DNA of 64,000 bases from Stachybotrys elegans (taxonomy: Eukaryota > Ascomycota > Sordariomycetes > Hypocreales > Stachybotryaceae). Every line of letters starts with the position of its first letter. Positions within the stretch are counted from its first letter, which is position 1. Under the pieces are notes generated by a model. It saw nothing but the letters and a program-made list of their open reading frames with translations. It ran no database searches and was not told the DNA's origin. The position numbers and the translations under genes are program-made. Below, one piece after another: positions 49,812 through 61,185 of the stretch. Where the stretch lies: the NCBI GenBank assembly GCA_020746835.1, contig JAGPNK010000005.1, positions 1,674,001 to 1,738,000 of the forward strand, written 5' to 3'.

Positions 49812-49842
<31 letters not shown>

Positions 49843-51434: not shown

Positions 51435-51928
51435 TCACTGTGATTCCTGGCTGCCGACAATGATGCTGTCATCCTTTTCCTCGTCCTTGATGGGAGAATA
51501 GGATGGGGAAGTGGCCAGGTAGGAGTAGAAGACATCATCGTCCTCGAGATCTTCTTTCTTGAGCTTGCCCCGGACTCCCTTGCCCTTGGTGCCGGAGCGC
51601 TTGGTGGGTGTCTTGACGACCTTGGTGGGCGTGGCGCGCACAGAAGACGGGCTAGAGTTGGGATCGCTGCTGATTCCTAGCTTGCGCTTGACCTGGCCAA
51701 AGCGGACCTGAGGGGTAGAGGACCGTGGTCAGCGAACAGGATTCAGTGTCAAGAACAGAGCACGGGTGGTTATAGCAGTACCTTGGCGACTTCGGCATTC
51801 TTGAACCCTTGCTCTTCGGCGACGGCGACCCAGTCAATATCGGCCTTGTTCTTGGTGTGCTTGACGATCGCAAAGAAGAACATGGCTTCGGAGGCAGTGG
51901 GCTCCTTTTTCTTGGCCTGCTCTGCCAT
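51435..51928 (-). CDS. Small Myb/SANT-like nuclear protein, subtype B
   Basis: Two exons, 51928-51782 and 51707-51435, phase 0, 139 residues. The N-terminal domain reads TASEAMFFFAIVKHTKNKAD, IDWVAVAEEQGFKNAEVAK (intron), VRFGQVKRKLGI: helix, DW..VA helix, then an Arg/Lys recognition-like helix. The tail is Ser/Thr-Pro and basic (ATPTKVVKTPTKRSGTKGKG) then acidic, ending EEKDDSIIVGSQESQ. It lacks the Gln-His motif of subtype A. Nuclear DNA- or chromatin-binding is inferred from architecture. It is one of the tandemly arranged paralogues and is on the same strand as its neighbours at 49.4-53.7 kb. Confidence 0.72.
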
Positions 51929-56796: not shown

Positions 56797-58028
56797 ATGA
56801 ACACCAAGAATTGGAATGACCGCGCCGACAAGGACCTCTTCTTTACCATTTTGTCCGTCAAGAACATTGGCGTCATCAGCGGCAGCGAATGGACCACCAT
56901 TGGCAACCACATGAGAGGCCTCGGCTACGGCTTCACCAATGAAGGATGTCGGTACGTACTTATATCCATCTTATACACCACCACCACCACCACCATTCAC
57001 TCTCCACCATCTGCATCTTGACCCAACTCTCGGCCTTACCTTGTCTCGTCTCGTCTCATCCCTCTCAACCGCGACAATCGAAGCCATAGGTTTGCTGCCC
57101 ATGTCTTCGTCAAGTTCGGCTTTGCATGTGGGATGGCTCGTGAAGAATACAGAATGCCCCCGCCCACTTACATTCACACATGGTCAAACTCCTTGTCTTT
57201 GGTCCTCTTCACTTCCTCCTCATTCCAGCTCGATGCTCTCTGCACCTGCATTCCCTCACCGAGCCGCGGCTGACGGGCTTCTAGGCAACACTTCCAGGGC
57301 CTGCGGAGGGCGCAGAACAAGGTTGAGATCAATGGCGCAGTGGTGGACACCTCCAGGCGGGTTGATCCAACCATGAATCCCATCACACGTCGTCCAGGGC
57401 CTGGCAGGGGCAGGCCTCGCAAGCAGCAGGCTGTCGCAGCTCCCGTCGATGGTGTCCCGCCTGCCATCTCCGGTGCATCTCCAGCTCCAGCACTTGCACA
57501 TGCTCCGGAACCGGTCCCCATCCCCCAGGCTACGACACCTGCTGGTACACCGCAGCCACCATCGCAGAACGTGCCCATACCGCAAAACCTCATCTCAGAG
57601 AACAACGAGCACACGGAGCCCATTCCCATGTCGGCAGCACCATCCGACGCCTTGACCGCGCCCCAACTCCCTATCGTGGAGGACACACCGGGTATGACCC
57701 CTCCTCCCCCTCTTCCCGAGTCGGCACCAGAGTTGCAATTAGACACGGAAGCCGATGCGGAGGGAGACGATGAGCCCGCCGCAGATCATGACGTCGCAGG
57801 TGATGAGGACGAGCCGCCGTCAAAACGCCAGCGACTTGAAGAGCCAGACCTTCCCCAGGACACTTCGCTAGATGACGAGGCTGTCCTGGCACTAGCTGTA
57901 CACAGCAGCGCTGCCGTTGCAGACCAGGACCAGGATCAGGACCAGTACACGACGGAGTAAGTCTCTCCAGGACACTGCTTGGCTGATGCATACTGACGGA
58001 CTGTAGTTTCACGTACGGCGAGACATAG
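56797..58028 (+). CDS. Myb/SANT-like nuclear protein, subtype A, with long Pro/acidic tail
   Basis: Exons 56797-56951, 57285-57956 and 58007-58028 give 282 residues; intron 1 is unusually long for this window (333 bases) and in phase 2. The domain reads KNWNDRADKDLFFTILSVKN, then SEWTTIGNHMRGLGYGFTNE, then GCRQHFQGLRRAQNKVE, the subtype A pattern with Gln-His right after the junction. The tail begins with an AT-hook-like RRPGPGRGRPRKQQ (Gly-Arg-Pro core), then a long Pro/Ala-rich region, an acid stretch with the nuclear-signal-like PPSKRQRLEE, and (after intron 2) DFTYGET. The AT-hook-like motif supports DNA contact. Confidence 0.75.
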
Positions 58029-58564: not shown

Positions 58565-58740
58565 ATGCCACCTCGCGCCAACGGAAGCTCGACTTGGGGC
58601 AACGCCGAGTTCCTCAACGACTTGGTGATTGCCTTCTACAATACCAGCCACCAGGCCGGCGCGCTCAACTCCGATTCTCAGAAGACCATGGTCCAGTACC
58701 TCACCTCTCGCGGCTATACCATCTCCTGGGAGGCGATTCG
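58565..58740 (+). CDS. Candidate variable first exon 1 of the 58.6-60.0 kb Myb-like locus
   Basis: ATG at 58565 opens 58 codons plus two bases and ends at CG|GTAAGC, a strong donor in phase 2. It encodes STWGNAEFLNDLVIAFYNTS followed by TMVQYLTSRGYTISWEAI, the first two helices and turn of the subtype A domain. No Gln-His exon or any basic-tail exon follows before the next ATG at 59080; the only compatible acceptor exon is at 59706. Joining 58740 to 59706 gives Arg-Gln-His-Val-Gln-Lys-Leu, the exact family consensus. Either it is an alternative first exon sharing the downstream constant exons or a stranded duplicate. The intact frame and donor favour use. Confidence 0.6.
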
Positions 58741-59079
58741 GTAAGCATGGCTTTCTTCATCTGTCACGTTGGCCTCTGGAATATTCCCAGTGGCTTTCCT
58801 CTTGTTTCTATGCATCTCCATCTGTTTTGGCCGTGTGGGAACCGCCAGCCTGCTTGCCAGGTGTCAGGCACTGCTATGATTTCCTACCTCTCCTCCTCTC
58901 CTCCTCTCGCTCCTATTTATGCACCTCGATTTATTCTCCCTCTCTCCCTCCCCAAAGCACCCTCTTCGCCTTCATCCTAAAATCACTTCGCAATCAAGTT
59001 TTGGTCTGCCCTTGCTCCATCACGAGGCAATCATCATTCACAAATCCTTCTTCTATTCACGTTTCCCCCTATCGCAGCC

Positions 59080-59231
59080 ATGGGGCGTCAGACCATGAAG
59101 TGGGATCACAAGGTGCATGAGGATATCCTCATTGCCCTGTGCCAAAATCTCAAGCTCTCGGCGCCCGAGTGGTCGGCCGTCATGGCTGACATCCAGGCCA
59201 TGGGCTACACATTCACTGAGTCAGCTCTTCG
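59080..59231 (+). CDS. Candidate variable first exon 2 of the 58.6-60.0 kb Myb-like locus
   Basis: ATG at 59080, 50 codons plus two bases, ending CG|GTATGC in phase 2. It encodes MKWDHKVHEDILIALCQNL then PEWSAVMADIQAMGYTFTES then ALR, a canonical subtype A half-domain. It is preceded by its own C/T-rich leader (58880-59079) and followed by another (59234-59484), not by a tail exon. Splicing to 59706 would give ALR-QHVQKL. This is the copy closest to what I expect of the family consensus. Confidence 0.62.
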
Positions 59232-59484
59232 GTATGCTATTTTCTCATCTGCCAGCCCTTGTTTGCTTTTTTGCACCCATCCTAACCCATCTCTTTTTCT
59301 TCTTTTCACACACAAACCCAAAACACTTCCCAGAAAGATCAAGAGCCGCCAACGTTCAATTTTCTTTCCTGGTTCATCTCTCATTCTATCATCTCTCTAT
59401 CTCCAGCATACATTATCATTGTGCTCGGTTCCTGCTTTCATACCATCCCATCTGCCTTTACTTCTTCCACACCCACCATCCATC

Positions 59485-60014
59485 ATGTCTCGCAAGCCAA
59501 GTCGCGGCTGGGATGCCACCTCCCACGAATCACTGCTCATGGCATTCATCGACGAGATAAAGCCCAACAAGGCCATTATCCAAAACGTCACCCAGCGGAT
59601 GACTGCCATGGGCTATTCCTATACCTACGATGCAATCAAGTACCTTTTCCACGTTCAGTTATGAATCACTTGCCATGTGTCCTCTTGCTAACACCGAGAC
59701 TCCAGCCAGCATGTGCAGAAGTTGAAGAAGAACCGCGAGGCCGCCCCTCAGGGGGATGGCACTGTGACTCCCACCAAAACACCCACTACGCCTGCCAAGC
59801 GCAGCGCCAGTGGGAAGAAGAAGTCTGCCAAGCAGATGAAAGAGGACATCAGTGATGATGATCCAATCCCGAAACTCGAGTTTCCTGACGAGCTTCTCAT
59901 GGACACCCCGTCCAAGCGTGCCAAGACCAAGTAAGTAGGTATAGGACAAACTCATGAGGCGGGTGTGTCTAACATGTTGCTAGGACGGCTATGAAGGAGG
60001 CTTGGGAGTTTTAG
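59485..60014 (+). CDS. Myb/SANT-like nuclear protein, subtype A: variable exon 3 plus constant exons
   Basis: Exons 59485-59639, 59706-59930 and 59984-60014 give 136 residues. Exon 1 encodes RGWDATSHESLLMAFIDEI, then MTAMGYSYTYDAI, and ends AA|GTACCT in phase 2, a weaker donor than those of the two upstream exons. Exon 2, here called constant, starts C-CAG-CAT (Gln-His-Val-Gln-Lys-Leu-Lys-Lys) and encodes a basic Thr/Pro-rich tail (TPTKTPTTPAKRSASGKKK), an acid patch, LEFPDELLMDTPSKRAKTK, and via exon 3 TAMKEAWEF. This is the only one of the three tandem half-domains with directly adjacent downstream exons. Confidence 0.75.
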
Positions 60015-60798: not shown

Positions 60799-61185
60799 AT
60801 GCCTCCCAAGAAGAGCGCCGAGGACTCTCCCATGGGTCTCACCGACAGCGAACTCCGTTTCATCAAGGCTGTCTTCGACAACATGACGCAGAAGCCCGAC
60901 GCCGACTGGACTCGAGTCGCGGGCGACCTCGGTCTCAAGGACGCCAAGTGTGCCAAGGAGCGTTTCCGCCAGATGTCCGTCCGCCACGGCTGGCGCGAGC
61001 AGGCGGGCAACGGTGCGCCTTCGCCTTCTCCCCGCAAGCCCAAGGCTCCCAGCGCTGGTGTCAAGAAACCGCGTACCCCGCGCAAGAAGATGGCCAAGAG
61101 GAGCGACTCGGACGATTCAGATGATGTCAAGGGGGAGGACGATGATACCAAGATGAAGAACGAGGCCGATGAAGACGAGATCTAA
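60799..61185 (+). CDS. Small Myb/SANT-like nuclear protein, subtype B
   Basis: Single coding exon, 128 residues. The domain is LTDSELRFIKAVFDNMTQKP, then DADWTRVAGDLGLKDAKCAK, then ERFRQMSVRHGWREQ, closely parallel to the 51.4 kb member (DW..VA and A-K-x-R-F motifs). The tail is a basic histone-H1-like segment (SPSPRKPKAPSAGVKKPRTP then RKKMAKRSDSDD) followed by an acidic end, KMKNEADEDEI. Loss of the introns found in its paralogues could reflect a retro-copy or intron loss. Codons are strongly C-ending and the leader is C/T-rich, suggesting high expression (inference). Confidence 0.75.
   Translation: MPPKKSAEDSPMGLTDSELRFIKAVFDNMTQKPDADWTRVAGDLGLKDAKCAKERFRQMSVRHGWREQAGNGAPSPSPRKPKAPSAGVKKPRTPRKKMAKRSDSDDSDDVKGEDDDTKMKNEADEDEI

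What the first reader, a model, noticed from the sequence alone, without database searches (positions are those of the whole stretch)
58565..60014. Three tandem Myb-like first exons sharing one constant tail exon
At 58565-58740, 59080-59231 and 59485-59639 there are three intact ATG-started exons encoding the same half of a Myb-like domain. Each is preceded by its own pyrimidine-rich leader, and each ends in a phase-2 GT donor. Only one acceptor exon (59706-59930) can complete the third helix (Gln-His-Val-Gln-Lys-Leu) and add the basic tail, and it is in frame with all three donors. No tail exon lies between the ATGs. This is the layout of variable-first-exon/constant-exon loci (known in animals, for example UGT1A and protocadherins) and would let one gene make three nuclear proteins with different DNA-reading surfaces from three promoters. 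I know of no described fungal example of this kind for a DNA-binding domain.
Basis: partly seen in the sequence, partly recalled or inferred. Interest (0 to 1): 0.88.

Follow-up and report, generated by a model that had tools for sequence, protein, structure and literature searches.

The report
Three gene starts, one shared end
In the fungus Stachybotrys elegans three neighbouring start exons each encode the front of a small, predicted DNA-binding protein and a single exon completes all of them in frame, a layout that gene models of many related fungi also show, so one gene likely makes three different proteins.

Summary
The window is Stachybotrys elegans. E1 (58565-58740), E2 (59080-59231) and E3 (59485-59639) are intact ATG-started exons with phase-2 donors; one acceptor (59706) supplies QHVQKLKKNRE and the basic tail in frame with all three. 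E3+tail+a last exon (59984-60014) is the published protein B0I35DRAFT_459816. Profiles built without S. elegans find each head (E 2e-20 to 3e-28) and one strong tail (9e-13).

Relatives give the best support. Among 70 homologous proteins each head type is found joined to the tail at the same residue. Models of one species with different heads carry near-identical tails (F. falciforme E1/E2 105 of 106; F. proliferatum E2/E3 96 of 99) while the heads share 13 of 45 and 18 of 47. Heads sort by type; tails hardly do. Three models hold E1-E2-E3-tail in order. So this looks like an old, maintained variable-first-exon locus, not stranded duplicates.

Corrections: most of helix 3, the presumed recognition helix, is constant; the domain is predicted three-helix, without a convincing Pfam match. 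Promoters, transcripts and the 965- and 474-nt splices are unseen; 13 of 70 models are multi-head, so an E2-E3 fusion stays the main rival.

The parts
58565..58740 (+). Variable first exon E1: ATG, helices 1-2 and start of helix 3; phase-2 donor CG|GTAAGC at 58741
   Evidence: profile without S. elegans E=2e-20; E1 heads in 13 named relatives
59080..59231 (+). Variable first exon E2: ATG, same half-domain; phase-2 donor CG|GTATGC at 59232
   Evidence: profile without S. elegans E=2.5e-27; E2 heads in 20 named relatives
59485..59639 (+). Variable first exon E3: ATG, same half-domain; phase-2 donor AA|GTACCT at 59640
   Evidence: part of published protein P0001; profile without S. elegans E=3.2e-28
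58741..59079 (+). E1-E2 interval: no helix-3/tail exon found; no in-frame open acceptor leading into E2 (the only in-frame AG, before 58791, meets a stop)
58930..59079 (+). Pyrimidine-rich leader of E2 (0.707); candidate promoter/5'UTR, function inferred
59335..59484 (+). Pyrimidine-rich leader of E3 (0.700); candidate promoter/5'UTR, function inferred; in the rival E2-E3 fusion (acceptors 59334 or 59346) it would be coding linker
59688..59692 (+). CTAAC branch-point-like site, 16 nt before the AG (59704-59705) of the shared acceptor
   Evidence: fungal branch consensus recalled
59706..59930 (+). Constant exon 1: one base completing R (E1, E2) or N (E3), then QHVQKLKKNRE (rest of helix 3) and basic/acidic tail
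   Evidence: tail profile E=8.9e-13
59984..60014 (+). Constant exon 2: end of the protein (TAMKEAWEF-stop); intron 59931-59983 (GTAAGT)
   Evidence: spliced product equals P0001

Best explanation
This is most likely one gene with three alternative ATG-bearing first exons and a single constant tail, in which each first exon is likely transcribed from its own promoter and predicted to be spliced to the same acceptor at 59706. Shown: the exons, their compatible phase, only one tail exon in the locus that completes helix 3, and the presence of all three head types and of the same join in gene models of relatives. Inferred: promoter use, the E1 and E2 splices, and that the products are nuclear DNA-binding proteins that keep one constant helix 3 and basic tail but differ in helices 1-2 and the first turn of helix 3, so that promoter choice would change the scaffold, partner contacts or fine specificity of the domain.
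For: (1) Exon anatomy and phase; no other acceptor within 1,300 nt supplies helix 3. (2) Of the 68 of 70 homologous proteins that have a tail, gene models join it directly to E1 in 3, to E2 in 14 and to E3 in 51. (3) Joins without insert read N after E3 in 43 of 43 and R after E1/E2 in 16 of 16 (9 of 68 joins with an insert set aside), as expected if AA and CG donors meet one tail whose first base is C or T. (4) Different heads with nearly the same tail: F. falciforme E1 vs E2 tails 105/106, heads 13/45; F. proliferatum E2 vs E3 tails 96/99, heads 18/47; T. viride E2 vs E3 tails 93/103, heads 8/47; T. longibrachiatum E1 vs T. aethiopicum E3 tails 94/97, heads 15/46. (5) Head tree: E1, E2 and E3 each on one side of a branch (four groups, 3 changes, the minimum; shuffled mean 34.9). 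Tail tree: 14 changes of head type (minimum 2; shuffled mean 15.9), tails grouping largely by genus. (6) Order E1-E2-E3-tail in single models of F. decemcellulare P0061, T. harzianum P0049 and Tolypocladium capitatum P0044; T. evansii has the consecutively numbered models 378373 (E1 and part of E2, no tail) and 378372 (E3-tail).
Against: No RNA was available; the joins in relatives are gene predictions, some perhaps ab initio, and I saw no two single-head models with the same tail from one and the same genome. The published S. elegans model uses only E3. The predicted E1 and E2 introns are 965 and 474 nt, long for an ascomycete (recalled), and would compete with the 66-nt E3 intron; the E0 gene does appear to have a 333-nt intron at the same place. 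13 of 70 models glue two or three heads into one chain. Support for the E2 and E3 groups in the head tree is low (44 and 14; E1 97). The tail tree keeps a hint of clustering by head type (16 of 200 shuffles as low), and the S. elegans tail, a long branch of odd composition, does not group with the S. chartarum tail. The own-genome searches gave no second copy, but they also missed the diverged paralogues E0 and 50031(-), so they say little about distant copies. E1's leader is not pyrimidine-rich.
Confidence: 0.77

Rival explanations
1. A single multi-domain protein: heads are spliced to each other (E2 to E3, or E1 to E2 to E3) and then to the tail, giving tandem half-domains with one complete domain at the end.
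For: 13 of 70 relatives' models are multi-head: 5 E1-E2-tail, 3 E1-E2-E3-tail, 2 E2-E3-tail, 1 E1-E3-tail, 2 E1-E2 without tail. In S. elegans E2 and E3 lie in one open frame and in-frame acceptors for E2-to-E3 exist at 59334, 59346 and 59502; a CTAAC lies 50 nt before the AG of the first.
Against: In S. elegans E1 cannot be joined from its 58741 donor to E2 in frame: the only in-frame AG, before 58791, meets a stop. Linkers differ in length and sequence between species, and in 11 of 16 inter-head joins a Met lies within 18 residues before the next head; by eye, in several of these (MAKRQ, MSGKP, MGAPKS, MPSRGW) what follows it matches the start of single-head proteins. E1 and E2 would lose most of helix 3. 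57 of 70 models have one head.
Confidence: 0.12
2. Stranded duplicates: E1 and E2 are remnants of tandem gene copies that lost their tails and are not used.
For: Only E3+tail is the published S. elegans model seen here; a gene with its own tail (E0, 56797-) lies just upstream, so duplication happens here.
Against: E1 and E2 heads are present as open, alignable coding stretches in models of 13 and 20 named relatives, of 8 and 12 genera; window E1 matches relatives' E1 (best 24/50) better than the window's own E2 (10/47) or E3 (13/47), and E2 likewise (33/47 vs 14/47 for E3). Unused remnants would not be expected to persist so.
Confidence: 0.05
3. Conserved upstream reading frames: E1 and E2 are translated within one long leader and regulate E3, without being joined to the tail.
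For: P0014 and P0019 are E1-E2 models without any tail, read past the E2 donor to a stop.
Against: The conserved stretch is a predicted structured half-domain that ends at a phase-compatible donor; single-head E1-tail or E2-tail models exist in 5 genera (Fusarium, Trichoderma, Trichothecium, Amphichorda, Cladobotryum).
Confidence: 0.06

Closest known systems
Vertebrate GCNT2 (IGnT) cluster: three variable first exons, two constant exons in human, mouse and rat (PMC1885805, passages read)
   Same: Number and order of parts: three homologous tandem first exons, each with its own start, and two shared 3' exons.
   Different: Kingdom, protein (glycosyltransferase), scale; there a distinct promoter and a separate splice are reported for each variable exon. 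No sequence relation claimed.
Vertebrate UGT1 and clustered protocadherin alpha/gamma (PMC1885805, passages)
   Same: Variable N-terminal part, constant C-terminal part, homologous variable exons in tandem.
   Different: About a dozen or more variable exons; here three, and the junction cuts inside one small domain, within helix 3.
Type I (mutually exclusive) alternative first exons of plants (PMC2174465, passages)
   Same: Mutually exclusive first exons on shared downstream exons.
   Different: In type I clusters the commonest outcome reported is an identical ORF; here each first exon codes a divergent copy of the same half-domain.
Alternative transcription starts in fungi, e.g. F. graminearum Zeb2 (review PMC9604717, passages) and Cryptococcus (PMC11302930, passages)
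   Same: Alternative starts altering a protein's N-terminus, in Zeb2 removing a DNA-binding domain.
   Different: The passages seen describe truncation, leaders or targeting; 'first exon' occurs 0 times in the main text of either.
Trichoderma virens Xlr2 microexon (PMC11121469, start of abstract in a search listing only)
   Same: A Hypocreales gene whose RNA form decides on a DNA-binding domain.
   Different: Inclusion of an internal microexon, not a choice among homologous first exons.
Small GT-1/homeodomain/Myb-like three-helix DNA-binding domains

Membership tests
Variable-first-exon / constant-exon gene | Tandem homologous first exons, each with its own start codon | tested here: met
   E1, E2, E3 each ATG-started and homologous
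Variable-first-exon / constant-exon gene | One downstream constant exon set, none between the variable exons, phase-compatible with all donors | tested here: met
Variable-first-exon / constant-exon gene | Constant exons shared in evolution (heads sort by type, tails do not) | tested here: met
   on gene models and with the weak supports stated
Variable-first-exon / constant-exon gene | A separate promoter before each variable exon | not testable with these tools
   no CAGE or RNA; leaders of E2 and E3 pyrimidine-rich, E1 not
Variable-first-exon / constant-exon gene | Each variable exon spliced to the constant exons in RNA | not testable with these tools
   only gene models seen; the E3 join is the published S. 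elegans protein
Myb/SANT domain (Pfam) | Match of the window's proteins above a curated Pfam Myb/SANT cut-off | tested here: not met
   no Myb/SANT model listed up to E 1 for E1, E2 or E3+tail; (41 members scanned, 25 of 50 families shown): Myb_DNA-bind_4 in 3 and Myb_DNA-bind_3 in 2, best E 0.029; commonest is HTH_12 in 8, best E 0.00075
Myb/homeodomain-like three-helix fold | Three helices with a long third helix; similarity to solved DNA-binding domains | tested here: inconclusive

The most novel reading that the evidence does not exclude
A protocadherin/GCNT2-style gene in fungi, kept across the order Hypocreales, in which promoter choice swaps helices 1-2 of a DNA-binding domain while its recognition helix and basic tail stay fixed: a splice-made set of three transcription factors that genome annotation has been misreading as fusions or single genes.
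Probability: 0.6. Interest if true: 0.85.

Novelty: new variant of a known kind. Interest (0 to 1): 0.76.

Why it matters
Tandem homologous coding first exons on a constant tail are a well-known device of vertebrates. A long-kept fungal case, with the junction inside one small DNA-binding-like domain, would show the layout in another kingdom and in compact, short-intron genomes, and gives a simple three-part system to test how a distal donor wins over a proximal one. It would also explain why public gene models of this locus differ so widely (eight head/tail arrangements among 70 proteins).

Tried and rejected
Looked for a hidden tail behind E1 or E2: AG acceptors from 45 to 1,300 nt behind each donor were translated; none between the heads supplies a helix-3 sequence. 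Looked for second copies in the genome: none found (3, 2 and 1 candidates scored; next-best for the tail E 0.06 and 0.16), but these searches also missed the diverged paralogues known from the window. Pfam: nothing convincing. Foldseek: no match at E<=0.001 for either model; the E1 model's rows are mostly ribosomal proteins at probability 0.25 or less. Looked for relatives' DNA to measure codon-level selection and splice sites: one scan each of genome contigs and viral contigs gave no relative, so no dN/dS. Literature: searches (20 of 44, 15 of 145, 20 of 227, 12 of 117, 12 of 6,613 and 7 of 7 papers listed) and 'variable first exon'+'fung' (6 of 6 listed; one of them opened, where the phrase is a reference title) showed no fungal tandem homologous coding first exons in the titles and abstract starts listed; (9 of 9 listed) gave mainly vertebrate clusters; one search gave 0 papers. 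The library is open-access PMC only and most listings were partial, so this is no proof of absence. The 'different DNA-reading surfaces' reading was rejected as worded.

Sampling caveat: the 70 proteins are all rows returned under the E limits (12 of 16, 11 of 17 and 55 of 3,566 candidates; 8 of the 55 already seen); one search was queried with tails taken from models already found, so class counts are not a random sample. Heads were classed with profiles seeded by me and then checked on the tree. Near-identical species were not removed. Structure jobs used 41 and 35 chosen rows, not all 70.

Full report
What the window is. E3+tail+last exon, spliced from the window, is identical to the 136-residue protein B0I35DRAFT_459816 of Stachybotrys elegans (P0001), a fungus of the order Hypocreales; the window lies in a 43.4-Mb assembly.

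The observation. The constant part has a second short exon, 59984-60014. Profiles built from relatives only find E1, E2 and E3 at E 2e-20, 2.5e-27 and 3.2e-28 and the 59706 tail at 8.9e-13; the tail profile also hits, far more weakly, the basic ends of two other window genes (2.2e-4 and 0.002); helix 3 alone has a single window hit under E 1. Translating behind AG acceptors 45-1,300 nt from each donor finds no other exon that completes helix 3. Searches of the own genome gave no second copy of E1, E2, E3 or tail, but they also missed the diverged paralogues E0 and 50031(-), so they only exclude close copies.

Relatives. Three searches gave 70 proteins (sequences). Their head/tail make-up: E3-tail 45, E2-tail 9, E1-E2-tail 5, E1-tail 3, E1-E2-E3-tail 3, E2-E3-tail 2, E1-E2 without tail 2, E1-E3-tail 1. 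Each of the three heads is thus found joined directly to the tail in some species. Where nothing is inserted, the residue at the junction is N behind E3 in 43 of 43 and R behind E1 or E2 in 16 of 16 (9 of 68 joins carry an insert and were set aside). In the window the codons are AA|C and CG|C, and a single tail starting with C or T predicts just this.

One tail, many heads. If each head had its own tail, tails would sort by head. They hardly do: F. falciforme E1 and E2 models share 105 of 106 tail residues but 13 of 45 in the heads; F. proliferatum E2 and E3 share 96 of 99 and 18 of 47; T. viride E2 and E3 share 93 of 103 and 8 of 47. These are different records of one species name, not two models of one genome, and records named T. 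viride are heterogeneous (P0035 is more distant). On the head tree the types each fall on one side of a branch (four groups, 3 changes, the minimum; support 97 for E1 but only 44 and 14 for E2 and E3). On the tail tree the head type changes 14 times (minimum 2, shuffled mean 15.9, as low in 16 of 200 shuffles); tails group largely by genus, though the S. elegans tail, a long branch, does not join that of S. chartarum. Three models of three genera hold E1, E2, E3 and one tail in that order, and none of the 70 holds a second QHxQKL motif. In T. evansii the consecutively numbered models 378373 and 378372 are E1 with part of E2 and no tail, and E3-tail.

Are the multi-head models real fusions? 13 of 70 chains have more than one head. 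Their linkers differ from species to species, and in 11 of 16 inter-head joins a Met lies within 18 residues before the next head; by eye, what follows it in several (MAKRQ, MSGKP, MGAPKS, MPSRGW) equals the N-terminus of single-head proteins. This looks like gene callers reading through leaders. In S. elegans E1 cannot reach E2 in frame from its donor. E2 can reach E3 in frame (acceptors 59334, 59346, 59502), so this fusion stays the main rival.

How it likely works. Inferred: separate starts before each ATG, the cap-nearest donor joining the shared acceptor. The E1 and E2 donors (GTAAGC, GTATGC) look closer to the fungal consensus (recalled: GTRAGT) than E3's GTACCT, which could help a distal donor win over the 66-nt E3 intron. 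CTAAC lies 16 nt before the shared AG. Introns of 965 and 474 nt would be long for an ascomycete (recalled); the paralogue E0 upstream appears to have a 333-nt intron at the same position (my model, not an annotation).

Known things. Anatomically it matches vertebrate GCNT2 (three variable, two constant exons), UGT1 and protocadherins (PMC1885805, passages). Plant type I first exons mostly keep the ORF (PMC2174465, passages). A review and a genome-wide study of fungal alternative starts do not use the phrase 'first exon' in their main texts (PMC9604717, PMC11302930, passages). I found no fungal case in the searches listed under Tried and rejected; those listings were partial and subscription papers are not covered.

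Verdict. The layout is real and, on relatives' gene models, old and maintained; its use as a three-promoter gene is the best explanation (0.77) but waits for RNA.

Noticed in passing
56797 to about 57960 (+): E0: a paralogue of the same head (exon 1 56797-56951) with its own long tail; predicted 333-nt intron 56952-57284 at the same phase-2 position (R|QHFQGLRR).
   Followed up: partly
50031 to about 49454 (-): Another paralogue on the minus strand, with a predicted 92-nt intron at the same place (S|QHFTKV) that contains a run of 30 C (30 G at 49812-49841 on the + strand).
   Followed up: partly
51438-51728 (-): A basic/acidic ORF end that the tail profile hits weakly (E 0.002); perhaps the tail of a further paralogue, making 49-61 kb a small family cluster.
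   Followed up: no
60801-61185 (+): Single-exon reading frame with a sub-threshold match to Pfam Myb_DNA-bind_8 (E 0.00065, 19.4 bits against a cut-off of 27), directly downstream; the tail profile hits its end at 2.2e-4.
   Followed up: no
P0014 (Stachybotrys chartarum, residues after the E1 head): The E1-E2 model reads R-QHVI-M before E2; QHV equals the first residues of the constant tail. Chance acceptor in the leader or a remnant of an old E1 tail; needs the DNA.
   Followed up: no
P0007, P0008, P0010, P0062 (unnamed sources): E3-tail reading frames in which the stretch at the usual intron position stays open and in frame (19 to 26 residues between head and QH).
   Followed up: no
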